Positions 41,303 to 64,000 of a stretch of 64,000 bases of DNA are shown here, in pieces. The stretch spans positions 1 through 64,000 of the forward strand of contig NZ_JAUDBQ010000009.1 in NCBI RefSeq assembly GCF_030372105.1, in the 5' to 3' direction. The DNA is from Cellulomonas cellasea (GTDB lineage: Bacteria; Actinomycetota; Actinomycetes; Actinomycetales; Cellulomonadaceae). The notes under the pieces were generated by a model, which was not told the origin of the DNA, searched no databases, and saw only the letters and a program-made list of their open reading frames with translations. Position 1 is the stretch's first letter. Each line of letters starts with the position of its first letter. Made by a program: the position numbers and the translations under genes.

Positions 41303-41303
41303 A

Positions 41304-41630: not shown

Positions 41631-42380
41631 CTAGGCCGCCATCGCCCTGACGGGCCGCCCGGCGAGCCAGCCCGCCAACCGGTCCGGGCGGTCGGTGATG
41701 ATCGCGTCAACCCCCGCGGCCGTCGCCGCAGCCCATTGCTCGGGCTCGTTGAGCGTCCACACCATGACCACCACGCCCGCCTCGCGGAGCTCGTCCACCA
41801 GGCCCGGATGGTCGCGCAGCAACTGCCCGTGCGGGTTGCACGCCACCACGTCGAGCCCGCGGCACAGGCCGATCAGGTCGTCATGGAGCTCCGCGATCAG
41901 CAGCCCCCGCCGCAGCGACGGGGCCGCCTCCCGCAGGGCCGCGACCGTGCCCGGCCAGAAGCTCTGCGCGATGGTGCGCGAGCCCAGGCCGGCGGCGGCC
42001 ACCGCCTGCGTCACCGGGCGGACCTGCTCGGCGGTCCACTCCCCCTTGACCTCCAGCAGCAGGTCGAGGCCCGGGCGCTCGAGCATCAGGCCCAGCACCT
42101 CGTCGAACGTCGGCACCCGGTGCCCCGCGAACACCGGCGAGAACCATGACCCGGCGTCCAGCCCGCGCACCTCGTCAGCGGTCATCGAGCGCACCTCGCC
42201 CGCGCCGTCGGTGGTCGCGTCGACGGTGTCGTCGTGGATCACCACGACCTGGCCGTCGGCGGTGAGCTGCACGTCGATCTCGATCGCGTGGGCGCCCGCA
42301 CGCCACGCCGCCTCGAAGGCCGCGAGCGTGTTCTGCGGCGCCACCGAGGAGTTGCCCCGATGCCCGATCACGACGGTCAC
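41631..42380 (-). CDS. Glycerophosphodiester phosphodiesterase
   Basis: 249 aa. GDPD TIM barrel: IGHRGNSSVAPQNTLAAF (catalytic His and Arg), AIEIDVQLTADGQVVVIHDD (Glu/Asp metal ligands and second His), LEVKGEW, and the C-terminal VWTLNEPEQW and DAIITDRPDRL. It hydrolyses glycerophosphodiesters to an alcohol and glycerol-3-phosphate (UgpQ role). The GTG at 42380 overlaps the binding-protein stop as GTGA, so the enzyme is coupled to the transporter. Confidence 0.93.
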   Translation of the reverse strand: MTVVIGHRGNSSVAPQNTLAAFEAAWRAGAHAIEIDVQLTADGQVVVIHDDTVDATTDGAGEVRSMTADEVRGLDAGSWFSPVFAGHRVPTFDEVLGLMLERPGLDLLLEVKGEWTAEQVRPVTQAVAAAGLGSRTIAQSFWPGTVAALREAAPSLRRGLLIAELHDDLIGLCRGLDVVACNPHGQLLRDHPGLVDELREAGVVVMVWTLNEPEQWAAATAAGVDAIITDRPDRLAGWLAGRPVRAMAA

Positions 42381-43747: not shown

Positions 43748-43819
43748 GGGATTCTCCTAGGGGTGGGAGGTCGCACGGTGCTGCGGTCGCAGCCCGGACG
43801 TGTGAGGGGGCGCGTCACA

Positions 43820-44794: not shown

Positions 44795-45732
44795 GCGTAG
44801 TGCACCTTCCGCTCGACGTAACGCATCTGGACCGCTGTGACGGCGAGCAGGACGAGGAAGAGGATCGTGGCCCCCGCCGACGCGTAGCCGGCCCGGCCGT
44901 TGACGAAGCCCTCCTGGTAGATCTGGTACATCAGCGTCGTGGTGCTGCCCAGCGGGCCGCCCTGCGTCATCGCCTTGATCACGTCGAAGGACTGCAACGA
45001 GCTGAGCATCATCGTCACGACCAGGAAGAACGTGGTCGGGGTGAGCAGCGGCAACACCACCGAGCGCAGCGTCCGCGTCCGCGAGGCGCCGTCGAGCGAC
45101 GCCGCGTCGCGCAGGTCCTGCGGGATGGCCTGCAGGCCGGCCAAGTAGATGAGCGCGACGTACCCGACGTGCTTCCACAGGTAGACCACGGTGATCATCA
45201 CCAGCGGCCACGGCTCCGCCGTGTACCACTGCGGCGAGGACAGCCCCACCATGCGCAGCAGCGCGCCGATCAGCCCGTAGCGCGGATCGAACATGAACAG
45301 CCACAGCACGCCGACGGCGAACCCCGAGAGCACGTACGGCGCGAAGGCCACGGTGCGCGCGAAGCCCCGGCCGGCCATCTTCCGGTTCAGCAGCAGCGCC
45401 AAGCCCAGGCCGAGCACCAGCGAGCCGCCCACCGTCGCGACCGTGAACACCGCGGTGGTGGTGAGCACCTGCGCTGTGCCCGGGTCGGTGAACCACTCGC
45501 GGTAGTTGCCCAGCCCCACGAACCGGGCCACCGGCGACCCGAGATTCCACTGCATCGTCGACAGGTAGAAGCTCTCCACCAGCGGCCGGTACACGAACAG
45601 CAGCAACAGGGCGATGTTGGGCCCGGCCAGCAGCGCGAATGCCACCAGGTCACGGCGCCGTCGGCGGCTCGAGCGACGCTTCGGCCCGGGGGTGATCCCC
45701 GTGGGCGGCGGGTGCAGGACTGTCGTCGACAT
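44791..45732 (-). CDS. Ugp-like ABC permease (MalF/UgpA type)
   Basis: 313 aa, six membrane segments after a short basic N-terminus (GPKRRSSRRRRRD). EAA loop RDAASLDGASRTRTLRSVVLP. First gene of the four-gene operon permease-permease-binding protein-phosphodiesterase. As in the sugar operon, no ATPase gene is present. Confidence 0.92.
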   Translation of the reverse strand: MSTTVLHPPPTGITPGPKRRSSRRRRRDLVAFALLAGPNIALLLLFVYRPLVESFYLSTMQWNLGSPVARFVGLGNYREWFTDPGTAQVLTTTAVFTVATVGGSLVLGLGLALLLNRKMAGRGFARTVAFAPYVLSGFAVGVLWLFMFDPRYGLIGALLRMVGLSSPQWYTAEPWPLVMITVVYLWKHVGYVALIYLAGLQAIPQDLRDAASLDGASRTRTLRSVVLPLLTPTTFFLVVTMMLSSLQSFDVIKAMTQGGPLGSTTTLMYQIYQEGFVNGRAGYASAGATILFLVLLAVTAVQMRYVERKVHYA

Positions 45733-46183
45733 GGCACTTCTCTTCGTGGGACTGGGGCTCCGGAGAGCTCGGCCACGACGAAGTTAAGGAGCCCGCTGGG
45801 GCGCCTGGCGCCAAAGCACGGAGAGTTGCCGGGCCGTTGGCGGAAGGTTCATATGCCGTCTCCCCAGTTCGCCGTCAGGCCCGGTTCTCGACACCCGCCG
45901 ACAGTCGCGTTCGGTGGCCCTCCAGCACTGGTCGGTACGATCGGGGCCGGTCAGTGCCGGGGGACGAGCCCCCAGCCATCGGACGACGGAGCGCGCAGCA
46001 CGATGCAGCGGGGAAGTGTGGCGGCCGTTCTGGCCTGCTCAGCGGCGGCCCAGCCGCCCGCCCAGCACGCCTGACACCCCCTCATCGGGGGCGGTCGGCG
46101 CTGCTCGGCGAAGCGTGCCCTCCCGCCGCGGACAACCGCCGGCGGGACCCGCCACCCGCACTGTCACCCGAGAGCTGAGAACC
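45733..46183. other. Divergent intergenic region, 451 bases
   Basis: Must contain promoters for the ugp-like operon (minus) and the FBP-domain gene (plus). I see short palindromes (GGCGCC-TG-GGCGCC-like near 45800), a TACGAT -10-like box near 45940, and GC-rich hairpins near 46070-46100 and 46130-46150, but no gene, clear operator or confident promoter. Confidence 0.5.
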
Positions 46184-51832: not shown

Positions 51833-52807
51833 CTACCTCCCGGGCGCGGCCACCTGCGCCGCTGCCTCTGAGAGCAGCCGGTGGGCGCCGGAGCCCTCGG
51901 GCACGACCAGCTCGATGCGGGTGGCGCCGGCGCTCAGCGTGACCACCATGACGCCCAGGTAGTCGGGGTGCGGCGCGACGTCGATCGTGTCCGGGGCGTT
52001 GAGCGGGATGACCAGGCGCGATGCGGAGTGCATGGGCTTCTTGCCGCGCACCAGCCACTCGTGGCGCCCGAACACCTCCAGGGCGAAAGAGTCACCGGCG
52101 ACGACGGCGCCGTGGAGTGTCACGGGCGAGAACGCGTGCCCGATGGCCTTGACCGGGTCGGCGCCGCGCAGCGCGACCTGGCGCCGGCCGTGCCCCGACC
52201 ACAGGGTCAGGCCCGGCAGGCGTCGCGACACGTCCTGGAAGTCCCCGAGCAGGGAGGCGTCCACTCGGCCGAGGTCCGGTGTGGCGCAGGCGTGCTGGGC
52301 GCCCGAGTCGATCAGGGCGAACGCCAGGGGACGCGGGTAGCCCTCCGACGCACGGGCCCGGAGCTCGTCGACGAGCGCCCTCATCGCGCTCCGGCCTGAG
52401 CCGTTGTACCGGACGGTGAGGTCGGAGCCGGTGCGGGTGTGCAGCGTCAACGTGCCGTCGAGCAGGTTCATGACGTCACGGACCGCCACCACGTCCTCGA
52501 ACGGCACGTCGCGCACGTCGAAGGCGCCCGGCCCCGGCGCGCGCCGTGGCTGGTGGTCGTGCTCGGTGCGCCGCGACAGGACGGTGAGCCCGTCGTCGTC
52601 GAGCACGAGGAGGTGGTCGTACAGGTCCATGTCCGCCGTGGCGTCGCGGCGGGCGATGTTCCGGGGGACCTTGAGCACCAGGCGCCCGGCGTCGAGGTCG
52701 ACCGGGTGGCCGCGGAACAGGCGGGGGATGTCCTCCGGGAGGCGCACCTCGTCGATCCACGGACCGAAGCGGTCGTACTCGCTGGTTCCGGCCGCTGTGG
52801 TGTCCAT
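51833..52807 (-). CDS. Unknown cytoplasmic protein
   Basis: 324 aa from the ATG at 52807 (MDTTAAGTSEYDRFGPWIDE). No signal peptide or membrane segment. The sequence is rich in beta-strands with repeated hydrophobic alternation (HLLVLDDDGLTVLSRR, LTLHTRTGSDLTVRYNGSG, GVMVVTLSAGATRIELVVPE) and resembles PH-like domain arrays, but I do not recognise a family. It is on the same strand as the biosynthetic operon that ends 139 bases upstream; whether it belongs to it is open. Confidence 0.7.
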   Translation of the reverse strand: MDTTAAGTSEYDRFGPWIDEVRLPEDIPRLFRGHPVDLDAGRLVLKVPRNIARRDATADMDLYDHLLVLDDDGLTVLSRRTEHDHQPRRAPGPGAFDVRDVPFEDVVAVRDVMNLLDGTLTLHTRTGSDLTVRYNGSGRSAMRALVDELRARASEGYPRPLAFALIDSGAQHACATPDLGRVDASLLGDFQDVSRRLPGLTLWSGHGRRQVALRGADPVKAIGHAFSPVTLHGAVVAGDSFALEVFGRHEWLVRGKKPMHSASRLVIPLNAPDTIDVAPHPDYLGVMVVTLSAGATRIELVVPEGSGAHRLLSEAAAQVAAPGR

Positions 52808-52946: not shown

Positions 52947-54035
52947 TCAACGAGACCCGATGCGGCTCTCAGGGCGAAGGCCCACTGCGACGGGGGCGTT
53001 GAAGATCCGGCGGGGGACCGACTCGAACACGTCGGAGATCTGCTCCTCGGAGTACCCGGCGGCTCTCATCCGTTCGACGGCGTCCGCCACCGTCGAGACG
53101 CACGCCGCGACACGGCCGTCTCGCCGATACCACAGTCCGTTGTCGGAGTGCCTGAACACGGACTGGCCCGCCATCACAGGCGCCTGGATGTCGTCGGTCA
53201 TCGCCGCCAGATGGCCGGGCCCGAGGAAGTCCAGCGTGCGCTTCGCGACCGCCTGATCGACGTGCTCCCCGTCGAAGTTCATCATGAGGATGAGCTTGCC
53301 GCTCACAGCGAGCTCCACGAGACACGCTGGGACCTCCCCGAGAATCCGGGGAAGCGACTCGTGCGTCCACTCCTCCGCGAGCAGGCCTGCGATCTCGACG
53401 TCGCGTCGCGACCGCTCGTCATTCGTCCTCCAGGCGTGGACGAAGTTCCTCGGCATGTCGTTGTACAGATGGTCGGTGACGACCCAGGACGCGTCACACC
53501 CGTCAAAGCTCCACACGTACTCGACCAGCTCCCGGACCAGGCGGGCGGAACGGCTCGGGTCGTCGTGCCGAAAATGACCCAGAGCGATCCGCACCCCGTT
53601 CTGGTAGAAGAGGTCCACGAGATCTTGGAAAGTCCCGCCCGGTGCGATCTCCTCGTCCAACGCGGCATGATCGGGCCCAATGACGATGTACTCCAGGCCG
53701 AGCTTCCCGAGGCTCGCGATCCTCTCCCATTCGGCCCACGTGGGGATCCAGCACCCCTCGTCCGGGACGCCGCCATGGGTTCCGAGCAAGGGCCCCTCGA
53801 CTCCGAAGCCGATGATGCGGTCCTTCACGGCCTGGTCCGCGGCGGAATAGGCCCGCAGGGCGCTCTCGAGCTCGTCGAAGTAGTTCCGCCTCAGGAAGAT
53901 CGTCGGACACACGTACAGCCGTTGTGCAGCGGCATGCTCGGCGATCAGCCCGAGGTCGCCCGCCCGCATGCTGCTGAAGTCGATGTCCGCGATCCCATGA
54001 GTGTGAACCGCGAAACGATCCTCGGTGTTCGTCAT
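52947..54035 (-). CDS. NagA-like amidohydrolase, diverged
   Basis: 362 aa. It keeps the order of NagA (N-acetylglucosamine-6-phosphate deacetylase) motifs: HTHG (11-14), YVCPTIFLRR, EGP (80-82) with the nearby THGG, a GH at 153-154, DHLYND (188-193, compare THLYNAM), FDGEHV (254-259, compare DGIHV) and TDD (280-282, catalytic Asp region). Several flanks differ strongly, so a changed substrate is likely; in this setting deacylation of an amino sugar intermediate is the natural guess. ATG at 54035 overlaps the upstream stop as ATGA; last gene of the glmS operon. Confidence 0.78.
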   Translation of the reverse strand: MTNTEDRFAVHTHGIADIDFSSMRAGDLGLIAEHAAAQRLYVCPTIFLRRNYFDELESALRAYSAADQAVKDRIIGFGVEGPLLGTHGGVPDEGCWIPTWAEWERIASLGKLGLEYIVIGPDHAALDEEIAPGGTFQDLVDLFYQNGVRIALGHFRHDDPSRSARLVRELVEYVWSFDGCDASWVVTDHLYNDMPRNFVHAWRTNDERSRRDVEIAGLLAEEWTHESLPRILGEVPACLVELAVSGKLILMMNFDGEHVDQAVAKRTLDFLGPGHLAAMTDDIQAPVMAGQSVFRHSDNGLWYRRDGRVAACVSTVADAVERMRAAGYSEEQISDVFESVPRRIFNAPVAVGLRPESRIGSR

Positions 54036-55030
54036 CTGTCCGCGCTCGCCTTTCCTAGAGTTTCTGCCTCGTGGACCGTGTTTCTGACTGCTCGACCGGA
54101 ACTGAGCCCTCGGATGACCGGGGTTCGCGACGGGATGTCGGGGACGACGAAAGTTGTGCCGAGCACGAGTCGGTCCCACCTCGGGATCGCTTTCACCGGC
54201 AGCTCGCCGAGTAGGTCGCAGATCGTGCGCCATGTCTCGGGCTCCGCCGGGTCGTCGAAACTCCTGATGAGTTCCGTCAGCCGCTGGGCACGGGGGTCCT
54301 GCCGCGCACCCGCCCCGCCGAGGGCCTCATCCAGCTCTCGAGCGATCCGCGAGACGTCGAGGTCGATCCATCCGTGCTGCGCGTCCAACGCCTCGATGGC
54401 GCTGAGCAACTCGTCCCCGACGTCGGGCCGCGACTCGATGGCGTTGTAGAGCCGCGTCCGTTCGTCGTGATCGAAGAGGACTCCGATCTCGCGGATGACA
54501 TCCGCCGGTTCGTCAGCGGTGTGCACGAAGTTGAGGAGGCCGTTCGGCGCCGACACGTCGTGACGCAGTTGCCCCGCGGTCCTCCGGCGGGGGTCTGCGG
54601 GCCCTTTCGCCCGGCTCAGCGCCGAACTCGCCGGCCGTGCGTCGTCGCACCACAGCAGCACGAAGAGAGACGGGCCAGCTGTGAGCAGGTCGTCGACGAT
54701 GGCCTTCCGGTCTTCGCTGGCAACGTTCCACTGGTACTGCCAGAGGCCGCGGATCGTGTGCCGGTCGAACTCGAAAGGCCGGTAGGCGATCGCCCGGTAC
54801 CCCCGCGCGAGCAGCCACTCCAAGCATCTGCGGCCCGCGCGGCCAGCGAACGCGTCGGGCTTGAGCACCAGGGTGGCCAGGAGCTCCGCGGCCGCGGCGG
54901 GGTCCTCGACGTGGGTGCGGAAGTCCGCCCACGACTCGGCGAAGTAGGTGTCGACCGAGTACAGCTCCCGCTTGTCGTGGGACTCCGACATCCATTCAGG
55001 GACCGTCTCGCCAGGGTGGTGCCGCGTCAT
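54032..55030 (-). CDS. Protein with nucleoside-diphosphate-kinase-like core
   Basis: 332 aa. Residues about 48-188 follow the NDP-kinase pattern: LATLVLKPDAF with Lys57, a central SLFVLLWCDDA strand, ADPRRRTAGQLRHDV (compare NPxxAxxGTIRxD), and NFVHTADEPADVIREIGVLF where Asn167 and His170 sit as the catalytic N-x-x-H of NDP kinases. About 45 residues precede it and about 140 follow with no recognised domain (helical, ending RAVRNTVHEAETLGK). Could phosphorylate a nucleotide-activated intermediate or act on a non-nucleotide. ATG at 55030 directly abuts the aminotransferase stop. Confidence 0.75.
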   Translation of the reverse strand: MTRHHPGETVPEWMSESHDKRELYSVDTYFAESWADFRTHVEDPAAAAELLATLVLKPDAFAGRAGRRCLEWLLARGYRAIAYRPFEFDRHTIRGLWQYQWNVASEDRKAIVDDLLTAGPSLFVLLWCDDARPASSALSRAKGPADPRRRTAGQLRHDVSAPNGLLNFVHTADEPADVIREIGVLFDHDERTRLYNAIESRPDVGDELLSAIEALDAQHGWIDLDVSRIARELDEALGGAGARQDPRAQRLTELIRSFDDPAEPETWRTICDLLGELPVKAIPRWDRLVLGTTFVVPDIPSRTPVIRGLSSGRAVRNTVHEAETLGKASADR

Positions 55031-56299
55031 CTAGACCACGCTCCCGCGCACGTCGGCGATCGCCATCTCGAGGATGGATCCGATGCGGGCGACGTCCTCC
55101 TGCTCGATGATCAGCGGCGGGTGGATGTTCAGGACATCCGGCGCGATTCCGGTGCTGGCCAGGACGAGCCCTTCGTCGGGGTCGATCGTCAGCGCGCTCG
55201 CCCGGACCTGTCCTGCCCAGTCCCCGTTCAGGCGGACGCCGGCTGCGGCGCCGAACACCTCAAAGCCAGCCACAACGTCCCCGTTCCGCCGGAGAAGCTC
55301 CTTGAGGACGTCGGTGAGGCCCAACTCGATCGTTGCCACAACGCTCTCCGGGTCGCGCCACGCCTCCCACCTGTCCAGGACGGCGTCGATGACGCCCAGG
55401 GTCGAGGGGATCCCCACGTACGTGGACGAGTGGCTTCCCGGCTTGTAGGCCTCAGGCCCGGCCAGATCGTCCCTGCTCCAGACCACTGAGGCGGCAGCGC
55501 TGCCGTTCGTGAGCCCTTTGCTCGTCACGACGATGTCGGGGGCGACCCCGGACCGCATGAATCCCCATCGAGGCCCGGTCCGGTGCATGCCGGTGAAGAT
55601 CTCGTCGGCGATCACGAGCGCGCCCTCGCGCCGAGCCGCGTCGACGTACGCGCGCAGTTCGCGGTGCGACGGCTCGATCATGCCGGCCACGTTCAGGACG
55701 GGCTCGAAGATCATGGCCACCGCACGCCGTCCCGACGCACGTCCCCCCACGCCCGTGATCTCCCCGAAGATGTCGGCGGAGCCCTCACGGTAGGAGCCGC
55801 TGCCCGGGATCGGCAGTCTCACGACTTCGAGGCCCCAGGCTGCCAGGAGCTCGCGATAGCGAGGGCTCGAGCTCAGCATGCTGGTGACGCCGGACCGCCC
55901 ATGGAACGCGCCCTGGAAGACGAGGATCGTTCCCGGCCCCTTGTTGGCAGCGACGATCCTCAGCGCCGTCTCCATCGCCTGCGCCCCGCCCAGGTCCAGG
56001 TCGACCCGACCCGCAACGCCTGTGACCTCAGAGAAGAGCCTCTCCAGCCGTTCAAGGACGTCGAGCCGCTGGGTCGACTCGCAGAACGAGGGAAGAGCGG
56101 GCATCCCAGCGATCCGCCGCGCGGCGTCGGCCATCAGCTCGGAGTCGTACCCGAAGGCCAGCGTGCCATTGGCCGCCTCTGCGTCAAGGTACGGGCGGCC
56201 CCTGGTGTCGTAGATCCGCAGCCCCTGGCTCCGCTCGAATACCGGTACGACGTCAGACCGGTAGATGAGATTGCCTGTCGACACGTGTCTCGGGATCAC
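55031..56299 (-). CDS. Class III (GSA-type) PLP aminotransferase
   Basis: 422 aa. Fold-type I class III: YDTRGRPYLDAEAANGTLAF, FQGAFHGRSGVTSML, FEPVLNVAGMIEPSHREL, LVIADEIFTGMHRTG and the PLP-lysine segment VTSKGLTNGSAAAS, with GSHSSTYVGIP later. The group includes glutamate-1-semialdehyde aminomutase and aminotransferases acting on aldehydes or sugars in antibiotic pathways. The GTG at 56299 overlaps the formyltransferase stop as GTGA. Confidence 0.9.
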   Translation of the reverse strand: MIPRHVSTGNLIYRSDVVPVFERSQGLRIYDTRGRPYLDAEAANGTLAFGYDSELMADAARRIAGMPALPSFCESTQRLDVLERLERLFSEVTGVAGRVDLDLGGAQAMETALRIVAANKGPGTILVFQGAFHGRSGVTSMLSSSPRYRELLAAWGLEVVRLPIPGSGSYREGSADIFGEITGVGGRASGRRAVAMIFEPVLNVAGMIEPSHRELRAYVDAARREGALVIADEIFTGMHRTGPRWGFMRSGVAPDIVVTSKGLTNGSAAASVVWSRDDLAGPEAYKPGSHSSTYVGIPSTLGVIDAVLDRWEAWRDPESVVATIELGLTDVLKELLRRNGDVVAGFEVFGAAAGVRLNGDWAGQVRASALTIDPDEGLVLASTGIAPDVLNIHPPLIIEQEDVARIGSILEMAIADVRGSVV

Positions 56300-57135
56300 G
56301 GGCGGTCCTCTCTTCTGTCCTCGTGGGCCGCCAGAGACTGGCCGCCAAACTGCAGCTCCTGCCCGTCGAGCATCACGGCGTGCGACCCGTCCCGGTGTGT
56401 CCTCGTCGAGACCGAGATCCGCCCCTCCGCCAGCCGTTCCACCGCCCACCGCAAAGCGGGGCGGTCGCTCATGGCCTTCTGTCGCAGCTCCTGGCTCTTC
56501 GCGGTCTCATCCGCGCACACGGGGGTCTGCGGCCCCATGCAGATGATCGGACCGGTGTCGATGCCCTCCGTCACGAAGAAGCAGGACGTCCTGGTCGCTC
56601 GCCTGCCGTCAGCCAGCGCCTGGGCAACGGGATTCGTTCCGACGTACATGCGGCGGTTGTCGGGGGTCAGGACTGTCAGGTCCGCCGGATGCACGTTCAC
56701 CATTCGGTGGCGGTATCGAGCCAGGAGGTTTCCCTGGATGAGGCGGTGGTAGGCAAGGACGACGAGGTCGATCCGCCCGTTGACGCGTTCCCACGCCTCG
56801 ATGCGCTCGTCGAGCCGGTCGTGCCACTCACGGGCGCGTGCCTCGTAGTCGGCGATCCTCCCGGCCGCCGCGGCCTCGCTGCGTCTGCCGCACTTCTCGT
56901 CGTAGTCGCCGACCCAGGTCTCGACTCCGGCAGATCTCGCCACCTCGACCGCCGGAGCGTGCGGCCCGTGCGCGACCACGAGGGGCACGTCGACCATGTC
57001 GGGGGCCCGTCGCGCCATGTCCAGCAGCGTCCTGAGGTTGCTGCCGGTGGCGGAGACGAGCACCGCGACCCGCAAGGGGGCGCCACGGAGGGCGGCGCCA
57101 GGCGCCCTTCGTGGCGCGTGGTCCACGCCGCTCAC
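56296..57135 (-). CDS. PurN-like formyltransferase-fold enzyme
   Basis: 279 aa. PurN/Fmt fold: VAVLVSATGSNLRTLLDMA, VVLAYHRLIQGNLLARYRHR, MVNVHPADLTV (compare N-x-HPSLLP of GAR transformylase) and FFVTEGIDTGPIICMGP with the conserved Asp. The catalytic Asn-His-Asp set thus appears to be kept. A purine-pathway role is unlikely next to glmS and an aminotransferase; N-formylation (or another one-carbon transfer) of an amino intermediate is the inference. GTG at 57135 overlaps the glmS stop. Confidence 0.83.
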   Translation of the reverse strand: MSGVDHAPRRAPGAALRGAPLRVAVLVSATGSNLRTLLDMARRAPDMVDVPLVVAHGPHAPAVEVARSAGVETWVGDYDEKCGRRSEAAAAGRIADYEARAREWHDRLDERIEAWERVNGRIDLVVLAYHRLIQGNLLARYRHRMVNVHPADLTVLTPDNRRMYVGTNPVAQALADGRRATRTSCFFVTEGIDTGPIICMGPQTPVCADETAKSQELRQKAMSDRPALRWAVERLAEGRISVSTRTHRDGSHAVMLDGQELQFGGQSLAAHEDRREDRP

Positions 57136-59018
57136 TCGACCGTGACCGACTTGGCGAGGTTGCGCGGCTGGTCCACGTCCAGGCCCTTGGCCGCGGCGAG
57201 CGCCATCGCGAACATCTGCAACGGCACGACAGCCAGCAGGGGCTGGAGCAGTTTGGGCGCCTGCGGGATCCAGAAGACCTCGTCCGCGTACGCGTGGACC
57301 TCGTCGTCGCCGTCCTCGGCGATCACGAGTGTGCGGGCCCCGCGGGCGCGGATCTCTTGGATGGTCGAGATCATCTTGGAGTGGAGCGAGTCACGCCCGC
57401 GCGGCGACGGGACCACCACGAACACCGGCTGTCCCTCGTCGATGAGGGCGATGGGACCGTGCTTGAGCTCCCCGGCGGCGAAGCCCTCGGCGTGGATGTA
57501 GGCGAGCTCCTTGAGTTTGAGCGCGCCCTCGAGGGCGACGGGGAAGCCGACGTGTCGGCCGAGGAACAGCACCGACGACGCGTCGCGCATCGACTCGGCA
57601 GTGGCGCGCACGTGCTCCCCGCGCTCGATGACCGTGTGGATTTTCTGAGGCATGTCACGCAGCTCGGCTAGGACTGCGGCTATCTCGTCCGGGCGCATGC
57701 ATCCCCGCAGCTGTGCCAGGTAGAGGCCGAGCAGGTAGGCGGCGGTGACCTGGGCGAGGAACGCCTTGGTCGACGCGACGGCGATCTCGGGGCCCGCGTG
57801 CGTGTAGAGGACCGCGTCGGACTCGCGCGGGATCGTCGAACCATGGGTGTTCACGATGGAGATGACGAGGGCGCCCTGCTCGCGCGCGTGCCGCATGGCC
57901 ATGAGCGTGTCCATGGTCTCGCCAGACTGCGTCACCGCCACGACCAGCGTCTTCTCGTCCACGATCGGGTCGCGGTAGCGGAACTCGTGCGCGAGCTCGA
58001 CCTCGACCTCGATGCGGCACCAGCGCTCGATGGCGTATTTCGCCACGTGGCCGGAGTAGGCGGCGGTGCCGCAGGCCACGACGATGATCTTGTTCACCGC
58101 TCGCAGGAGCGTCTCGTCGACCCGCACGTCGTCGAGCACGAGGGCGCCCGACGCGTTCGTGCGACCCAGGAGCGTGTCCGCGACTGCCTGCGGCTGATCG
58201 TGGATCTCCTTGTCCATGAAAGACCGGAAGCCACCCTTCTCGGCGGCGGCGACGTCCCAGGTCACGGTGAAGCGCCTGGCCTCGCCCGGGTTGCCGTCGA
58301 AGTCCGTCACTGCCACTGATGTCGGCGTGATCGTGACGATCTGGTCCTGGCCCAGCTCGAGGGCCTCACGCGTGCGCGAGACGAACGCGGCGACGTCGGA
58401 GGCGAGGAAGTTCTCGCCCTCGCCCAGCCCGACCACGAGCGGCGAGTCGTGCCGGGCGCCGACGACGGTGTCGGGCAGGTCGGCGTGCACGGCGAGGAGC
58501 GTGAACGTGCCGTGAAGCCGGCCCGCGACGGCCCCCATGGCAGCCGTGAGGTCGCCGGTCTCCCGATAGGCCTTGGCGATGAGCTGCGCCGCGACCTCCG
58601 TGTCAGTCTCGGAACGGAAGACCACGCCGTCGGCGAGGAGTTCGTCCCTCAGCACCGCGAAATTCTCGACGATGCCGTTGTGGATGACGGCGAGCCGGTC
58701 CCCGTCGGCCAGGTGCGGGTGGGCGTTGGCGTCCGTCGGGCCGCCGTGCGTCGCCCAGCGGGTGTGGCCGATGGCTGCGGTCGCGTCGGGGAGCGGATGA
58801 AGCCCGATCTCCTCGACCAGGTTCGCCAGCTTGCCCGCCTTCTTGGCGGACGCCACCCGATCGAGGGATGGGCCGACGAGGGCGACGCCAGCCGAGTCGT
58901 ACCCTCGGTACTCGAGCCGACTGAGCCCTTCCATCGTGACATCCAGGGGCGTGGATGACGCCGTGACGCCGGCCGTGGCGCCCGGTCCCAGGCCTGTGTA
59001 CCCGACGATCCCACACAT
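57132..59018 (-). CDS. glmS: Glutamine-fructose-6-phosphate aminotransferase
   Basis: 628 aa. N-terminal Ntn glutaminase with the nucleophile Cys2 (MCGIVGYTG), RLEYRGYDSAGVAL, HTRWATHGGP and HNGIVENF; C-terminal isomerase with two SIS domains (VACGTAAYSGHVAKYAIERW, VTQSGETMDTLMAMRHA, GPEIAVASTKAFLAQ) and the end DQPRNLAKSVTVE. Makes glucosamine-6-phosphate. The ATG at 59018 is required since Cys must follow Met. Lying first in an operon of unusual enzymes without glmM or glmU, it may be a pathway-dedicated copy rather than the housekeeping one. Confidence 0.96.
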   Translation of the reverse strand: MCGIVGYTGLGPGATAGVTASSTPLDVTMEGLSRLEYRGYDSAGVALVGPSLDRVASAKKAGKLANLVEEIGLHPLPDATAAIGHTRWATHGGPTDANAHPHLADGDRLAVIHNGIVENFAVLRDELLADGVVFRSETDTEVAAQLIAKAYRETGDLTAAMGAVAGRLHGTFTLLAVHADLPDTVVGARHDSPLVVGLGEGENFLASDVAAFVSRTREALELGQDQIVTITPTSVAVTDFDGNPGEARRFTVTWDVAAAEKGGFRSFMDKEIHDQPQAVADTLLGRTNASGALVLDDVRVDETLLRAVNKIIVVACGTAAYSGHVAKYAIERWCRIEVEVELAHEFRYRDPIVDEKTLVVAVTQSGETMDTLMAMRHAREQGALVISIVNTHGSTIPRESDAVLYTHAGPEIAVASTKAFLAQVTAAYLLGLYLAQLRGCMRPDEIAAVLAELRDMPQKIHTVIERGEHVRATAESMRDASSVLFLGRHVGFPVALEGALKLKELAYIHAEGFAAGELKHGPIALIDEGQPVFVVVPSPRGRDSLHSKMISTIQEIRARGARTLVIAEDGDDEVHAYADEVFWIPQAPKLLQPLLAVVPLQMFAMALAAAKGLDVDQPRNLAKSVTVE

Positions 59019-59556
59019 ACGAGCGGTCCTTCCTGCCTTCTGCTGATTAGCTGCGCTTCCCGGGACGAGCGGCCGAGGCATCCCTCACAGCCGAGGTCGC
59101 GCTGACGACATTCACCCTCCGAGCGCCGAGCAACTCCGCACGCGAGCCGAGGCCCATCGCCACCACCCGCGCCACCTCGACTCTCAGCCGGTGAAGACGG
59201 GCCCCTCTCCAACGAGAAGCACGCGCATGCCCTCTCTCTGCTCGTGCGGCGCCGAGCGCTGCTCATTCGCTCCCGGGACCGGCAGGTCGGACCCACGCTC
59301 GTCGGCGTCGGAGCCAGTGCCCGACGACTCTGTGCCGCGGGGCCGGAAATTGATACCACCTTGGGACCAAACGCGCCAAATGCGGCAAACCTGCCCTGAC
59401 GTCACTGAGGCCAACGGCGCCATCCCCTCCCCCGGCGATCAGACAAGGGACGTTTGACCCGATAAATCCTCGCATGTACCGTCTCGCAGGCTTGGCGGGG
59501 GGCCTTGGCTTCGGTGCGACCCGCCCCTCGGATTCCGCCCGCTGACGAACCGACTG
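59019..59556. other. Divergent control region of the biosynthetic cluster, 538 bases
   Basis: Separates the glmS operon (minus) from the nucleotidyltransferase-like operon (plus). Apart from the plus-strand promoter candidate listed separately, I see a short open frame on the minus strand (59047-59175) that I do not accept as a gene, and AT-richer patches near 59345-59390 that may be regulatory. No clear operator or terminator. Confidence 0.5.
59454..59482 (+). promoter_or_regulatory. Promoter candidate for the plus-strand biosynthetic operon
   Basis: -35 TTGACC (59454-59459), 17-base spacer, -10 TACCGT (59477-59482), about 70 bases before the first ATG. Good spacing, moderate -10 match. Confidence 0.5.
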
Positions 59557-61122
59557 ATGGAGACGCCGTTGTCCTCGCTCGATGCCATTCGTGACGCGCT
59601 CGTGTGGGCGGCCGGCGGGCCGGGTAACCCCGATCTCGGCGCGCTCGACCACGCGACTCTCATCGAGGCCCTTGCTCAGCACCGTCTCGAAGGGCGGGCC
59701 CTGTCGCGCGCCAGGAACGAGGGCCGCCCTCTTCCCCAGCTGCTCGAGGAGCATCTCGTGGGCTCGCACGCGCGCATCGTGCAGCGCGTCCACGACCAGA
59801 TCGAGTTGTTCCGCAAGGTGCGGGACTCCATCAGTCACGTGAAGCGCGGCCCCGGCCTGGTCGCGGTCAAGGGTTTCAGCCTGTATGCGCTGACAAAGCA
59901 CCCCGCGCACGCGTCGCACAGCGCGGACGTGGACGTGCTCGGCGAGGACCCGCACGAGGTCGCACGCGCGGTCGAGGCGACCGGCGGGGCCGGGTTCCAC
60001 TTCCACGGTGAGGAACACCCCTACGTGTTCGCTCACATGGACGATGTCGAGGTCCACACGCGCTATGTCGTCACGGGGATGCCGCCCGGCCTCTCGGTCG
60101 ACGTGCAGCGGGTGTCGGGCCCGGTCGAGCTCCGGACGTCGTTCTCGATCACGTCGGTCCTGTACCCCGACCTGGTCGACCTCCTCGTGCCCGGAACAGG
60201 CGTTGCGGAGGGGATCGAGGTGCTGTCCCCCGAGATGGCCGTCCTCATTCGTTGCGCCCACGTGTACGTCGGCTTCGCGATGAACACCCAGCCGCTGCCG
60301 TGGGCGACGGTACGCCTGGAGGAGCTCGCGCAGATGCGTGACTACCTCTCACTGGACAGCTTCGACGCGGCGCGCTTCCGTGCCTTGCACCAGCGGTACG
60401 ACGCGGGTCTCGTCACCGACTTCGCGCGCCGGCTCCACCTCGACCTCTTCGGGGAGGACCCTTTCCACGACGTGCTCGAAGACGGGCCCGCTGTCCGGAG
60501 CAGTTTCCCGCGCAACCTGTGGTGGGACGGCATCGACGCCGGGTTCCCCGTCGAGATCCCATGGGACGCGCGCAGTCTCGTCGGGTGCGCCGACGACCAT
60601 GGCGACCTCGCCGAGCTGCTCGGGCCGTCGGAGGTGACGCTTCCCGTCGATGGCGCCGTCTCCGTCTCGTTCCTGGAGAGCGGCGCCCCCGACACCGCCG
60701 AGCGCTACGTGCTCCACCGCTACCACGGCGGCCTCGCGTTCGTCCGCGTCGCCCTCGTTGACGCGGCGGACGGGCTGCGGATCACTGTCGCGTTCCCCCC
60801 GCTCGCCGACAGCCAGATGGCGGCGATCGGCTGGGCGACGGGCTCGTTCCGGTACGAGCTCTTCTACCGTCCGTCCGCGGGGACGCACGAGTTCGCCGAT
60901 TACTCGAGTTTCCCCGTGGAGACGCCGCCGAGCGTGGAGGGCTGCACAACGGGAGCCGACGGCGTGACGCTCACGATGAGCCTCCCGTGGCGGGCGTTGG
61001 GGCTCGACGGGCCGCTCGCTCCGACCGACACGCTGCCGCTGACGTTCCGTGCGAGGGTGCAAGAGCGTCCGTGGGGCGCCGTCATCGGTGGTGTCGTCGC
61101 ACCCTTGCGAGTCCGTCGGTGA
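59557..61122 (+). CDS. Nucleotidyltransferase-like (NTP_transf_5) protein with C-terminal beta domain
   Basis: 521 aa. The N-terminal 300 residues resemble the uncharacterised nucleotidyltransferase family seen in peptide and sugar biosynthetic clusters: Lys105-Gly106 in VAVKGFSLYAL, then HSADVDVLGEDP (Asp124, Asp126) as the D-x-D. The C-terminal 170 residues (about 350-521) are beta-rich and look like a carbohydrate-binding sandwich (CBM9-like by feel: RITVAFPPLADSQMAAIGWA, LTMSLPWRALGL). The ATG at 59557 has no strong ribosome-binding site, so the start is uncertain. Four-base overlap with the next gene. Confidence 0.7.
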   Translation: METPLSSLDAIRDALVWAAGGPGNPDLGALDHATLIEALAQHRLEGRALSRARNEGRPLPQLLEEHLVGSHARIVQRVHDQIELFRKVRDSISHVKRGPGLVAVKGFSLYALTKHPAHASHSADVDVLGEDPHEVARAVEATGGAGFHFHGEEHPYVFAHMDDVEVHTRYVVTGMPPGLSVDVQRVSGPVELRTSFSITSVLYPDLVDLLVPGTGVAEGIEVLSPEMAVLIRCAHVYVGFAMNTQPLPWATVRLEELAQMRDYLSLDSFDAARFRALHQRYDAGLVTDFARRLHLDLFGEDPFHDVLEDGPAVRSSFPRNLWWDGIDAGFPVEIPWDARSLVGCADDHGDLAELLGPSEVTLPVDGAVSVSFLESGAPDTAERYVLHRYHGGLAFVRVALVDAADGLRITVAFPPLADSQMAAIGWATGSFRYELFYRPSAGTHEFADYSSFPVETPPSVEGCTTGADGVTLTMSLPWRALGLDGPLAPTDTLPLTFRARVQERPWGAVIGGVVAPLRVRR

Positions 61123-62378
61123 GCCGCATCCAGGACGCGGCGTGCTGGCCGATGGCCAGCCGCGCCGAGGCGATCGTCAGCAGCATCGTCCTGACGGCGG
61201 ACCACCTCCTGCAAGAGGCCGCGATCGACTACTGGGACATGTCCTCAGCGGGACACGTGGCCGTGGCCGAGCAGGTCCGCGCGTGCGGCTCGGACGAGGT
61301 CGTCGCGGCGCTCGACGCTGTGCTCCGGGCGCCGAGTGACGCTGCGGGCGTGAGCCGCCTCGATGAACGCGTCGCGGAGGCCGTCCGAGAGGACCTCCCC
61401 GGGTGGGGGGAGATCGGGGAGCGCGCGTTGCTGGCCGACGGCCTTGGGCGGCTCGCGGCGCACGTCGGACGCCGTCACGACGACCTCGTGCCCGCCGTGA
61501 CGGCCGAGGAACTGCTCCCGTGGGTGAAGCCGGCTCCCGCGCCCGGCGCCGAGCACGCCCCCGTGTGCGTGGTCATCCCGTTCCGTGACCGGAGCGCGAG
61601 CAGATCCCGGCTCCGCAATCTCCTGGCCTGTATCGGCGCACTGGCCGACCAAAGCCTCCACCGCACGTCCTACCGCGTCATCGTCGTCGAGGCCGACGAC
61701 CAGCCGCGGTGGGAGCAGACGATCCGGCCGTTGGTCGACGACTACGTGCACCTGCCCTCCGGGGGGCACTTCAACAAGTCCTGGGCGGTCAACGTCGGGA
61801 TCGTCCAGCTCGCCGGGGAGGCCGAGCTGATCTGCGTGCTGGATGCCGACGTGTTCGTCGACGGTGAGTTCGTCGAACGCAACGTGCGGCGGTTCCGTAC
61901 GAGAGGCGCGCAGGCGCACCTCCCGTTCCGCGACGCGCTGTGCCTCGACGAGGCGTCGTCCCACAGCGCCGCGCGGGACCGGCTCCTGGCGGGAAAGGAG
62001 TCGACCGACCTCGACGTGCTTCGCGGTGCGGTCCTCCGGCGGCCTCCCGGCCACTGCGTGTGGGTCCGGCGTGGGCTGTTCCTCCGGGTCGGCGGATTCG
62101 ACGAGCGCTTCGAGGGCTGGGGCGGTGAGGACCTCGACTTCGTCTTTCGCCTGGACGTCGTCGGAGCGGTGGACCGGTACGACGACACTCTGATCCACCT
62201 CTTCCACGAGCGCCCGCAGACCCAGGAGGACGGCCAGCGCTTCTACGCCGGTCGTCGGCTCCTGTCATGGCGCCCGTCCACGCCGATCGGCCAGCTCGCC
62301 CGTCCCGCGACATCGTCTGACGACGATCTGGCCGGCCTGATCGAGCGAGTCGAGCACCTCCCGGCGACGACGGCATGA
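61119..62378 (+). CDS. Glycosyltransferase family 2 with WGGED motif
   Basis: 419 aa. After a helical N-terminus of about 145 residues comes a GT-A domain: VCVVIPFRDRSASRSRLRNL, VLDADVFVD (DxD-type, 242-244), and GFDERFEGWGGEDLDFVFRL with W-G-G-E-D (334-338), the acceptor/catalytic motif of the galactosyl/GalNAc-transferase-like group (Glyco_transf_7C). No membrane anchor. Likely transfers a sugar in the pathway of this cluster. GTG at 61119 overlaps the upstream stop as GTGA. Confidence 0.85.
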   Translation: MSRIQDAACWPMASRAEAIVSSIVLTADHLLQEAAIDYWDMSSAGHVAVAEQVRACGSDEVVAALDAVLRAPSDAAGVSRLDERVAEAVREDLPGWGEIGERALLADGLGRLAAHVGRRHDDLVPAVTAEELLPWVKPAPAPGAEHAPVCVVIPFRDRSASRSRLRNLLACIGALADQSLHRTSYRVIVVEADDQPRWEQTIRPLVDDYVHLPSGGHFNKSWAVNVGIVQLAGEAELICVLDADVFVDGEFVERNVRRFRTRGAQAHLPFRDALCLDEASSHSAARDRLLAGKESTDLDVLRGAVLRRPPGHCVWVRRGLFLRVGGFDERFEGWGGEDLDFVFRLDVVGAVDRYDDTLIHLFHERPQTQEDGQRFYAGRRLLSWRPSTPIGQLARPATSSDDDLAGLIERVEHLPATTA

Positions 62379-63337
62379 GGGCGTTGTCCTGCCTCGACGC
62401 AGGCACGTCATTCGAGCGCATCGACGAGGTCGCGCGGGCGGCCGGCATGGACGCGGTGGTCATCGGCGACGCTGTCGCCACGAACCCCGAGCTCTGCGCA
62501 CAACTCGAAGAGAGTCGTCTCCGCGTCGTGCTCAACCTGCCGCTGCTCTTCGACCCCGAGCTGCTCGCGCGACGTCCCGAGACCCTTGCGGTGACGAGCA
62601 CCGGAGGGCGAGCGTCGGTGGGCTGGCTCCAGATGGCCTGTCCGCGCTCGGAGGACTTCTGGACCGACCGGAGCGACGTCCTGCGCACGGCGCTCGCCGC
62701 GGTTCGTCCCGACATGGTGTCACTCGACTTCGCCAGGACCTTCGTCTTCTGGGAGCGTGTCGGGCCGGACACCCGACCGGAGCAGATCGAGCACGGCTGC
62801 TGGTGCCCGAGGTGCCTCGACGGGCTGGAGCCCCCCGCCGACCGCGAGGAACTGGGCCGGCGGGCGGCACAGGCCGTCACGGCGCGGATCGGGCAGGCTG
62901 TCGACCTCGTCCGCGAGTCCCACCCCGATGTGCCGATCGGGGTCAAGGTGGTCCCGTGGCGCATGGCCGACTACGACGGCGCCCGGGAGTGGGCGTGCGG
63001 GCAGGACCTGAGCGCCATCGCCCCCTTGGTCGACTTCCTCATGCCGATGTCGTACTCGGCGCTGATCGGCAGGCCGCCTGCGTACCTGCGGGAGATGCAC
63101 CGTGAGCTCCGGGAGACGGCCGGACGCCCTCTCATGCCGTGGCTCCAGGCGGCCGCACTCGACGGTTCCGACCCCCTCCCCGTAGACGAGATCGCCGCGA
63201 TGCTCGACGCGATCGAGCACGACGCGGAGCTCGGCTACTGCGTTTTCCACCTCGACGGCATCGCCGATCGACCGGACGTCCTCAAGCTCCTCGCCACGAG
63301 GGCGCCGACATCCAACGACGTGAAGGAGATCGTGTGA
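62375..63337 (+). CDS. Putative TIM-barrel glycoside-hydrolase-like protein
   Basis: 320 aa. The pattern of alternating strands with FLMPMSYSALIG, GVKVVPWRMADYDG, MVSLDFARTFVFWERVG and CVFHLDGIAD suggests a (beta/alpha)8 barrel of the kind found in uncharacterised glycoside hydrolase-like families. HGCWCPRCLDG holds a Cys-x-x-Cys pair that could bind a metal. No secretion signal, so a cytoplasmic, biosynthetic rather than degradative role is possible. Overlaps both neighbours by four bases (ATGA, GTGA). Confidence 0.6.
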   Translation: MRALSCLDAGTSFERIDEVARAAGMDAVVIGDAVATNPELCAQLEESRLRVVLNLPLLFDPELLARRPETLAVTSTGGRASVGWLQMACPRSEDFWTDRSDVLRTALAAVRPDMVSLDFARTFVFWERVGPDTRPEQIEHGCWCPRCLDGLEPPADREELGRRAAQAVTARIGQAVDLVRESHPDVPIGVKVVPWRMADYDGAREWACGQDLSAIAPLVDFLMPMSYSALIGRPPAYLREMHRELRETAGRPLMPWLQAAALDGSDPLPVDEIAAMLDAIEHDAELGYCVFHLDGIADRPDVLKLLATRAPTSNDVKEIV

Positions 63338-64000
63338 CCGACATGGAGCTCGACGTGTTCGGACCTGAGCCATGGCTGCGCATCGGCGACCGGGAGTTCC
63401 ACTCCCGGCTCCTCCTCGGGGTCGAGCAGTACACCGAGCCGCCGCTCGTGCGCGACGTCCTCAACGGCAGCGGCGCCGACGTCTTCATCACGACCTACGA
63501 CCTGGAGCGGACCCGGAGCAGCCTCCTGCTGTCCGACCTCGACCGCGAGGTCGACCTCACCAGGTTCACGTGGATCGGCACCACGTCCTTCTCGCACTCG
63601 GCAGCGGACGCGGTGGAGACGGCGCGGCAGCTGCGCTCGGCTCTCGGCCTGGACATCATCAAGCTCGACGTGCGCGACGGCGACAACCGGCCCGACGCCG
63701 AGGCCACGATCGCTGCTGCGAAGGAGTTGCTGAACGACGGCTTCAGCCTGCTGCCGTTCATCCTTCCCTCGGTCGAGACGGCACGCGTCCTCGAGGGCAT
63801 TGGCTGCTCGGCTCTGCGCCTGATGGCGGCTCCGGTCGCCAGCTACCTCGGCATCGTCGATCCCGAGAGCCTCCGGGCGTGCATGGACGCAGTCAGCATC
63901 CCGACAGTCGTCGAAGGCGGCCTCGGGAGCCCTGCCGACGTCACCCGTGCGTTCGAGCTGGGCGCCGACGCCGTGCTCGTCAACACGTTGGTCGCGCGCG
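63334..64000 (+). CDS. ThiG-like (thiazole synthase/BexX-like) enzyme, truncated by the window end
   Basis: About 222 codons present, 3' end outside. ThiG signatures in order: LRIGDREFHSRLLLGVEQYT, WIGTTSFSHSAADAVETARQ, IIKLDVRDGDN (Schiff-base Lys kept), LLPFILPSVETARVL, IGCSALRLMAAPVAS, PTVVEGGLGSPADV and LGADAVLVNTLVA (phosphate-binding loops). Relative to ThiG the two active-site acids are exchanged in type: KLE becomes KLD and VDAG becomes VEGG. There are no other thiamine genes here. BexX, a ThiG homologue, makes a 2-thiosugar phosphate, so a sugar-phosphate substrate is a reasonable inference next to glmS. Confidence 0.85.
   Translation, partial: MTDMELDVFGPEPWLRIGDREFHSRLLLGVEQYTEPPLVRDVLNGSGADVFITTYDLERTRSSLLLSDLDREVDLTRFTWIGTTSFSHSAADAVETARQLRSALGLDIIKLDVRDGDNRPDAEATIAAAKELLNDGFSLLPFILPSVETARVLEGIGCSALRLMAAPVASYLGIVDPESLRACMDAVSIPTVVEGGLGSPADVTRAFELGADAVLVNTLVAR

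What the first reader, a model, noticed from the sequence alone, without database searches (positions are those of the whole stretch)
52947..64000. Undescribed-looking divergent cluster combining glmS, NDPK-like, NagA-like and ThiG-like enzymes
Seen: nine genes in two divergent operons with nearly every junction a 4-nt overlap or zero gap. They are glmS, PurN-like, class III aminotransferase, NDPK-like, NagA-like; then nucleotidyltransferase-like, WGGED glycosyltransferase, barrel protein, ThiG-like. Known: GlmS gives glucosamine-6-phosphate; the ThiG homologue BexX acts on glucose-6-phosphate to build a 2-thiosugar. Inference: a pathway to an amino- or thio-sugar-containing metabolite. I know of no characterised cluster with this set.
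Basis: partly seen in the sequence, partly recalled or inferred. Interest (0 to 1): 0.82.

Follow-up and report, generated by a model that had tools for sequence, protein, structure and literature searches.

The report
Self-contained thiosugar-making gene cluster
This stretch of an actinobacterial genome carries what looks like a complete kit for making a sugar with sulfur built into it (the enzyme, its own sulfur supply chain and finishing enzymes), next to a second set of genes, probably for an amino sugar, that differs from strain to strain.

Summary
In detail: nine genes in two divergent operons, tightly packed. The plus operon continues past 64000 with a HAD phosphatase, a CysO-type sulfur carrier ending in GG and a MoeZ-type activating enzyme with rhodanese domain. 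The ThiG-like protein is BexX-type: its best solved match is the 4n6e 'putative thiosugar synthase' (274 bits, against 129 for ThiG), and it groups with BexX, apart from ThiG. The carrier's best solved match is the carrier chain of that same entry. No other gene of these three kinds was found in the genome. The block ntp5-gt2-barrel-thiG-HAD-carrier-moeZ recurs in Cellulomonas sp. Root485 and an unnamed relative; C. algicola has the part from gt2 on, at a contig edge. Flanking genes differ in each. The minus operon (glmS, purN-like, aminotransferase III, NDPK-like, NagA-like) therefore looks strain-specific; only its NDPK-like gene was seen in a relative. Best reading: a 2-thiosugar pathway with its own sulfur relay, its product joined to an amino sugar. 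The thiosugar step is well supported; substrate, product and aminosugar arm are inferred. New variant of a known kind.

The parts
52947..54035 (-). NagA-like (amidohydrolase-type) protein, 362 aa, MTNTED start
   Evidence: No Pfam match above cut-off, no NCBIfam or meaningful PDB sequence match; weak co-linear profile match to E. coli NagA, E 1.7e-4; 2 of 374 genomes match, the own one and one at 38%, the latter next to a sugar nucleotidyltransferase
54032..55030 (-). NDPK-like protein, 332 aa, NDK domain about 54-190 plus C-terminal extension; His170 conserved
   Evidence: Pfam NDK 1.1e-9, above cut-off; K142, G143, L155, R156, H170, D173, D177 and R180 invariant in 8 of 8 proteins aligned
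55031..56299 (-). Class III (PLP) aminotransferase
   Evidence: Pfam Aminotran_3 1.7e-45; below the cut-off of each of the 25 NCBIfam models listed, of 69 matched
56296..57135 (-). PurN-like formyltransferase, 279 aa
   Evidence: Pfam Formyl_trans_N 3.8e-19; TIGR00639 PurN 77 bits against cut-off 150; GAR transformylase 3auf 4e-16
57132..59018 (-). glmS paralogue, 628 aa from MCGIVG, second full-length copy in the genome
   Evidence: 77% identical to the other copy at G000:C5:75297-77168; aligned without loss of motif stretches
59019..59556 (.). divergent intergenic region, 538 nt, between the two operons
   Evidence: no sigma-70-like site; no Rfam match here at E 0.1
59557..61122 (+). ntp5: NTP_transf_5 nucleotidyltransferase (about 31-298) with a C-terminal part of unknown family
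   Evidence: Pfam NTP_transf_5 3.4e-8, above cut-off; orthologues 65% in G064 and 53% in G037
61119..62378 (+). gt2: WGGED-type family 2 glycosyltransferase
   Evidence: Pfam Glycos_transf_2 and Glyco_transf_7C above cut-off; orthologues 63-71% in three relatives, one of them partial
62375..63337 (+). barrel: glycoside-hydrolase-like TIM barrel with invariant Cys89 and CxCxxC (142/144/147)
   Evidence: AlphaFold model pLDDT 77.7, pTM 0.84; Foldseek to Cwp19, PgaB and GH42 folds among 591 matches at E 0.001 or better; alignment of 4
63334..64000 (+). ThiG-like BexX-type thiosugar synthase (continues to 64074 on the contig); HAD 64071-64742, carrier 64810-65082 and moeZ 65079-66266 follow outside the window
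   Evidence: Pfam ThiG 5e-42; 4n6e 8.8e-81; tree; downstream genes

Best explanation
A biosynthetic gene cluster for a 2-thiosugar-containing small molecule that brings its own sulfur relay. The MoeZ-type E1 adenylates the C-terminal Gly-Gly of the CysO-type carrier and its rhodanese domain supplies sulfur, giving a carrier thiocarboxylate. The BexX-type ThiG-like enzyme binds a hexose 6-phosphate through Lys110 and takes sulfur from the carrier, giving a 2-thio-hexose 6-phosphate. The HAD enzyme removes the phosphate, and the nucleotidyltransferase, WGGED glycosyltransferase and glycoside-hydrolase-fold protein activate, attach and trim the sugar. In this strain the divergent operon supplies an amino-sugar partner: GlmS makes glucosamine 6-phosphate, the PurN-like enzyme formylates an amine, the NagA-like enzyme removes or exchanges the N-acyl group, the class III aminotransferase adds an amine and the NDPK-like enzyme phosphorylates. 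Supported by sequence: the kind of synthase, carrier and E1, the conserved block, and that no other gene of these three kinds was found in the genome. Inferred: catalysis, substrate, order of steps, the aminosugar arm and the product. My odds: a BexX-type thiosugar step 0.85; a secreted specialised metabolite 0.7; thiosugar joined to aminosugar 0.45.
For: ThiG-like: best solved match 4n6e/4n6f 'putative thiosugar synthase' 274 bits against 129 for the best ThiG. Maximum-likelihood tree of 15 rows: window plus 3 relatives form a clade (97/99) sister to BexX plus 3 Streptomyces rows, two of them identical (97/95); the 8 together are split from 7 ThiG at 100/100. Residues E31, D112, R162 and E194, picked from the sites printed, are shared by 8 of 8 BexX-type rows and differ in 7 of 7 ThiG rows; K110 is in all 15. 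Carrier: best solved match is chain B of 4n6e, then 3dwg (recalled as M. tuberculosis CysO); it ends AGG. E1: ThiF plus rhodanese, MoeZ model 488 bits. In the 99.9%-complete genome one ThiG-type match at E 0.001, one ThiS-family match and one full-length MoeZ-type match, plus two matches to its rhodanese part only, were found. All 7 core genes in two relatives (G064 in one run; G037 with ntp5 about 4 kb off and inverted), 6 in a third whose contig starts inside gt2. Positive control: the 59-62% ThiG-likes on 4 Streptomyces plasmids have a trehalose-6-phosphate synthase as second gene downstream in 4 of 4, and type II polyketide synthase genes upstream in 2 of 4; in the third the record ends first and in the fourth only 3 kb were fetched. 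BexX, MoeZ and carrier proteins make the BE-7585A 2-thiosugar (PMC5321127 and PMC4784017, passages read).
Against: No substrate or product is shown. The window clade differs from the BexX clade at 55-60 (YDLERT, YDLEQT in one, against VDPDNR) and 171 (Tyr against Gly), so glucose 6-phosphate may not be the substrate. The E1 is below the curated MoeZ cut-off (488 against 647 bits). Of the aminosugar operon only an NDPK-like gene was matched in the relatives' neighbourhoods, in G037, so its link to the core rests on the divergent arrangement and on plausibility. The paired ABC transporters found near 3 of 3 relatives' blocks were not seen next to this one in the part annotated. Three of the four hosts have a second ThiS-family gene, so a dedicated relay is not explained by a general lack of carriers. 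The NagA-like call is weak.
Confidence: 0.72

Rival explanations
1. Ordinary thiamine thiazole synthesis: the ThiG-like, carrier and E1 are simply this strain's ThiG, ThiS and ThiF, and the neighbours are unrelated.
For: They are the only ThiG-, ThiS- and MoeZ-type genes found in the genome. Relatives G103, G107, G031, G039 and G101 have a ThiG-type match (35-40%) and two ThiS-family genes each without ThiC, so lack of ThiC alone does not exclude a thiazole role.
Against: The protein groups with BexX and not with ThiG; the four residues picked out are BexX-type; it sits in a conserved block with a glycosyltransferase, a nucleotidyltransferase and a glycoside-hydrolase-fold protein.
Confidence: 0.08
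2. The plus operon is a complete thiosugar pathway, and the minus operon is a separate, unrelated aminosugar or cell-wall operon that only happens to lie beside it.
For: No glmS, purN-like, aminotransferase III or NagA-like match in the neighbourhoods read in three relatives (upstream side unseen in C. algicola); NDPK-like genes occur in many loci without thiG-like genes.
Against: In G037 the NDPK-like domain overlaps the end of ntp5 by 4 nt and is fused to an aminotransferase; NDPK-like with NTP_transf_5 also occurs on 2 plasmids that gave no ThiG-like match at E 1e-30, 4 of 13 NDPK-like loci in all, counted with a model trained on these same proteins; a second glmS in a compact divergent pair suggests a dedicated role.
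Confidence: 0.3
3. The glmS paralogue is a self-protection gene: the product, a glucosamine 6-phosphate mimic, inhibits GlmS, and the second copy resists it.
For: An intact-looking second GlmS, 77% identical to the other copy; a thio- or amino-hexose phosphate could resemble GlcN6P (inference).
Against: Nothing in the alignment points to altered inhibitor binding (read by eye); glmS is the first gene of an operon of biosynthetic-type enzymes; no glmS match in the relatives' neighbourhoods.
Confidence: 0.12

Closest known systems
BexX 2-thiosugar synthase and the BE-7585A pathway (Amycolatopsis orientalis)
   Same: 57% identical synthase with the same Lys110 and the same four picked residues; same partner types (CysO-type carrier, MoeZ-type E1) (passages)
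   Different: BE-7585A borrows carrier and E1 from primary metabolism (passages); here they are in the operon and no others were found in the genome. The glycosyltransferase is GT2 rather than the trehalose-6-phosphate-synthase type seen in the Streptomyces plasmid relatives, and no polyketide synthase is among the genes scanned here.
ThiG/ThiS/ThiF thiazole synthesis
   Same: same fold family and sulfur-relay logic; Lys110 conserved
   Different: 36-37% identity to the seven ThiG compared; four picked residues differ; no ThiC found
Thioquinolobactin and pyridine-dithiocarboxylate clusters (tqb, pdt), which carry their own sulfur-carrier members (PMC6006322, passages read)
   Same: a specialised-metabolite cluster with dedicated sulfur-carrier genes
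   Different: those belong to thiocarboxylic acids; here the acceptor is predicted to be a sugar
Carrier-E1-ThiG-like-HAD gene row on a Klebsiella oxytoca plasmid (L080)
   Same: same four functions in a row; ThiG-like best solved match is also 4n6e, 160 bits against 110
   Different: distant synthase (37.7%); no glycosyltransferase annotated in the 16.7 kb read; lies beside a PTS EIIA-like gene and a DeoR regulator

Membership tests
BexX-type 2-thiosugar synthase | closer to BexX than to ThiG in sequence and tree | tested here: met
BexX-type 2-thiosugar synthase | catalytic lysine (K110 in the shared numbering; role recalled) | tested here: met
   K110 aligned in 15 of 15 rows, ThiG included, so not diagnostic between the two
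BexX-type 2-thiosugar synthase | converts glucose 6-phosphate to the 2-thiosugar | not testable with these tools
   needs an enzyme assay; residues 55-60 and 171 differ from BexX
BE-7585A-type gene cluster | type II polyketide synthase and trehalose-6-phosphate-synthase-like glycosyltransferase near the synthase (as seen in Streptomyces plasmids) | tested here: not met
   not among the 12 cluster genes scanned; present in L056 and L057
CysO-type sulfur carrier | ThiS/MoaD-family protein with C-terminal Gly-Gly | tested here: met
   Pfam ThiS 1.9e-11; ends AGG; 4n6e chain B 3.1e-17; but below the SAMP1 and moaD_arch cut-offs of NCBIfam
MoeZ-type activating sulfurtransferase | ThiF-type E1 domain plus rhodanese domain, above the curated MoeZ cut-off | tested here: inconclusive
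   both domains present; 488 bits against MoeZ equivalog cut-off 647
Thiazole synthase ThiG of thiamine biosynthesis | ThiG-type residues at 31, 112, 162 and 194 | tested here: not met
   BexX-type at all four
Thiazole synthase ThiG of thiamine biosynthesis | complete thiamine route, ThiC in the genome | tested here: inconclusive
   no PF01964 match, but none in any of 14 family genomes either
Nucleoside diphosphate kinase | NDK domain with conserved histidine | tested here: met
   Pfam NDK above cut-off; His170 invariant in 8 of 8
Nucleoside diphosphate kinase | curated NDK equivalog score | tested here: not met
   23.5 bits against cut-off 155
NagA N-acetylglucosamine-6-phosphate deacetylase | profile similarity and NagA-like motifs | tested here: inconclusive
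   E 1.7e-4, probability 49%, over 269 columns to E. coli NagA, with EGP, GH, HLYN-MP, DG-HVD and TD stretches aligned; no Pfam or PDB match
PurN GAR transformylase | curated PurN score | tested here: not met
   77 bits against cut-off 150; may still work like a formyltransferase

The most novel reading that the evidence does not exclude
A new family of natural products in which a 2-thiosugar is joined to a strain-specific partner (an N-formylated or N-acyl amino sugar here; nucleotide-like or guanidino-type partners in the relatives), made by a portable seven-gene thiosugar block with its own sulfur relay, whose synthase clade has shifted to a hexose phosphate other than glucose 6-phosphate.
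Probability: 0.3. Interest if true: 0.82.

Novelty: new variant of a known kind. Interest (0 to 1): 0.64.

Why it matters
2-Thiosugars are rare in known metabolites (recalled); in the passages read here the worked-out example is BE-7585A, which borrows its sulfur carriers from primary metabolism. A compact operon that encodes synthase, carrier, activating enzyme and phosphatase, in a genome where no other copies of the first three were found, would be a portable thiosugar module. It would let the substrate range of BexX-type enzymes be tested across two clades, and it marks an unexplored group of metabolites in the Cellulomonas family. It also suggests that genes labelled 'nitronate monooxygenase' or 'thiamine biosynthesis protein ThiG' in the Streptomyces plasmid records may be thiosugar synthases, recognisable by a few residues.

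Tried and rejected
A phmmer search of the NagA-like protein against the PDB gave no match at E 1, and a profile search gave only helical-repeat and unrelated chains. A comparison with the amidohydrolase fused to an NDPK-like domain in L067 aligned only 33 columns. Rfam gave one match, to a miRNA family far below its gathering score and inside purN-like. No sigma-70-like sites were found in the divergent region and no tRNA in L002.

The genome-contig scan used two strict peptide patterns and returned 2 loci; the BexX segment seen has neither pattern, so this is no census. A profile search of 394 class-level genomes at E 1e-42 found only the own genome.

Idea that the hosts lack other sulfur carriers: true for this genome but not general, since G023, G037 and G064 each have a second ThiS-family gene. 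Dropped as a rule. Idea that absence of ThiC disproves a thiamine role: dropped, because ThiC is missing from 14 of 14 family genomes searched, including five with a ThiG-type match at 35-40%. NTP_transf_5 near NDPK-like genes: 4 of 13 loci, two of which hold the core itself; the model was trained on window, L044, L022, L067 and L069, so four of its hits match by construction, and the other nine loci were not scanned with Pfam. Weak.

The glycosyltransferase has 40-47% relatives in 6 of 394 class genomes, besides the own genome and 3 weak matches (E 5e-10 to 2.8e-9). None of the 6 loci (17-20 kb) has a tblastn match to the rest of the core, apart from a weak blastp match of a generic HAD in L050 and an NTP_transf_5-like frame in L052; so gt2 alone does not mark the pathway.

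Early gene calls used a crude scorer, replaced by a codon-usage scorer trained on 11 stretches of this genome, which still missed gt2 in L022 (found by tblastn). In one search the NagA-like query was in the wrong frame; it was replaced. One search gave one G037 gene (L022:3507-4884) in a wrong frame, so its 'no family' result is void and not used. Searches gave the aminotransferase with one extra codon in front, and searches gave gt2 with a 44-residue upstream extension; this should not matter for the matches. dN/dS by YN00 failed; only codon-position differences are used. The first alignment of the two GlmS copies failed on a wrong start and was repeated.

Full report
What is there. The window is bases 1-64000 of a 170,360-base contig in a 3.8 Mb, 99.9%-complete genome. 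Its relatives include Cellulomonas sp. Root485 and C. algicola: the contigs of G064 and G023 have the same lengths (1,148,283 and 17,842 bases) and the same match as the named contigs. The plus operon runs on past 64000: thiG-like to 64074, HAD phosphatase 64071-64742 (4-nt overlap), a 90-aa ThiS-family carrier ending AGG at 64810-65082 (67-nt gap), and a ThiF-plus-rhodanese protein at 65079-66266 (4-nt overlap).

The ThiG-like protein is of the BexX kind. Its best match among solved structures is 4n6e/4n6f, named putative thiosugar synthase (274 bits); the best ThiG scores 129. That 4n6e is BexX is recalled. [quoted passage not shown] PMC5321127). In a tree of 15 rows the window and three relatives form one clade (97/99), BexX and three Streptomyces rows (two identical) another (97/95), and these eight are split from seven ThiG at 100/100. 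Positions 31, 112, 162 and 194, picked after looking, are E, D, R, E in 8 of 8 BexX-type rows and different in 7 of 7 ThiG rows; Lys110 is in all 15. The window clade differs from the BexX clade at 55-60 and 171, which may mean another sugar phosphate.

The relay fits. The carrier's best solved match is chain B of 4n6e, labelled ThiS/MoaD family protein, then the chain in 3dwg/3dwm, which I recall as M. tuberculosis CysO. The E1 scores 488 bits against the MoeZ model, below its cut-off of 647. Searches of the own genome found no other ThiG-type match at E 0.001, no other ThiS-family match and no other MoeZ-type protein, only two matches to its rhodanese part. So here the relay appears dedicated. 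Against a simple reason for that: G023, G037 and G064 each have a second ThiS-family gene.

The conserved block. Of 221 family genomes, 75 have a ThiG-type match at E 1e-20; four (own, G064, G023, G037) are at 100, 88, 82 and 78% and the other 71 at 46% or less. ntp5, gt2, barrel, thiG-like, HAD, carrier and moeZ follow each other in the window and in G064; G023's contig begins inside gt2 and has the other five in order; G037 has gt2 to moeZ in order with ntp5 inverted and about 4 kb away. Paired ABC transporters lie next to moeZ in G064 and G037 and about 8 kb away, on the other strand, in G023; none was seen next to the window's block in the part annotated.

The flanks differ. G064 has a PPDK-type protein, a nucleotide-phosphodiesterase-type protein, an AAA_18-type protein, a dCTP deaminase-like protein, a HAD and a metallophosphatase. 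G023 has two thymidylate-kinase-like proteins, DegT aminotransferase, Gfo/Idh oxidoreductase, an OMP-decarboxylase-family protein, CYTH, a short-chain dehydrogenase and GTP cyclohydrolase II. G037 has an NDPK-like domain fused to a DegT aminotransferase, M20 peptidase, a second DegT, a GNAT, APH-type kinases, an epimerase and an ADI-family match below cut-off that looks like an amidinotransferase (my reading). The window has glmS, PurN-like, aminotransferase III, NDPK-like and NagA-like; none of these but NDPK-like gave a tblastn match in the neighbourhoods read in the three relatives, with the upstream side unseen in G023. The block therefore looks like a common thiosugar module with strain-specific partners, several of them aminosugar- or nucleotide-like. 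This is inference from gene content.

Other core proteins. The barrel has no Pfam match. Its AlphaFold model (pLDDT 77.7, pTM 0.84) resembles Cwp19, PgaB and GH42 enzymes best, among 591 matches at E 0.001; Cys89 and a CxCxxC motif are invariant in 4 of 4; GH42 enzymes carry a similar Cys-zinc site (recalled). ntp5 is NTP_transf_5 by Pfam; a KG...DxD pattern is kept in the three core members aligned. gt2 matches glycosyltransferase family 2 and a GT7-type C-terminal model.

The minus operon. glmS is a second copy, 77% identical to the other. The PurN-like and aminotransferase proteins are below the NCBIfam cut-offs listed, so their substrates are unknown. The NDPK-like protein keeps its histidine in 8 of 8 proteins aligned. 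A relative on a plasmid is fused to an amidohydrolase (L067), and others lie next to aminotransferases (L068, L069). NTP_transf_5 occurs in 4 of 13 NDPK-like loci, two of them holding the core, by a model trained on those proteins. The NagA-like protein aligns weakly with E. coli NagA.

Positive control. Among 72,556 plasmid records, ten matched the ThiG-like protein at E 1e-30; four Streptomyces records are at 59-62% and six others at 36-39%. In 4 of 4 of the Streptomyces records a trehalose-6-phosphate synthase is the second gene downstream; type II polyketide genes are seen upstream in two, in the third the record ends first, and in the fourth only 3 kb were fetched. No match to any other protein of the window's cluster, carrier and moeZ included, was found in the three of these loci searched by tblastn. 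This is the BE-7585A arrangement as I recall it, and the contrast with the window is the dedicated relay.

Literature. Searches for BexX with thiosugar, thiosugar with gene cluster and ThiG (none), BE-7585A with sulfur carrier, NDPK-like with gene cluster terms, 2-thiosugar with gene cluster or sulfur-carrier (20 of 29 listed), thiosugar with Cellulomonas, ThiG homolog, MoeZ or thiosugar, and thiosugar biosynthesis or genome mining since 2018 (5 of 6,680 listed) showed, by titles and abstract starts, no paper that describes such a cluster; the library holds only open-licence PubMed Central papers. In PMC6395733 and PMC12664062 the term occurs only in the reference list. PMC6006322 (passages) says that the tqb and pdt clusters possess their own sulfur-carrier members, so dedicated relays as such are not new.

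Verdict. A BexX-type thiosugar step with its own relay is well supported (0.85). That the whole makes a thiosugar joined to an aminosugar is a guess with some support (0.45). Interest 0.64, new variant of a known kind.

Noticed in passing
L080 (Klebsiella oxytoca plasmid NZ_CP093272.1, 174011-190694), 6505-9415: A row of PTS EIIA-like protein, 86-aa protein ending AGG (no Pfam match at E 0.001), ThiF-family E1, BexX-like ThiG protein (best solved match 4n6e, 160 bits against 110 for thiazole synthase) and HAD hydrolase: a second, distant thiosugar-synthase-like module with its own relay. No match in the E. coli genome collection by distant blastn; one other K. oxytoca plasmid has it in pieces (100% over 59% of the query, two places).
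   Followed up: partly
window 51833-52807 (-): 324-aa protein with no Pfam match at E 1 next to the minus operon; not part of the tight operon.
   Followed up: no
L020, L021, L066-L069, L082-L086: A divergent NDPK-like family recurs on Streptomyces plasmids, one Enterobacter plasmid and in other Cellulomonas-family loci, in several beside or fused to enzymes of biosynthetic type: aminotransferases (L068, L069), amidohydrolase (L067), genes annotated trpD (L084-L086), and in L021 what reads like a split transketolase (not scanned).
   Followed up: partly
14 family genomes: ThiC was found in 0 of 14 genomes searched, although five of them have a ThiG-type match at 35-40% and two ThiS-family genes each.
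   Followed up: no
L065 (Agrobacterium tumefaciens pAt), 8710-9846: A distant relative (25%) of the barrel protein occurs on 19 Agrobacterium plasmid records; on the one looked at it lies beside sugar ABC transporter genes.
   Followed up: no
window about 33900-46000: Sugar-use genes that look like glycoside hydrolases and two sugar ABC importers (read from translations, not scanned).
   Followed up: no
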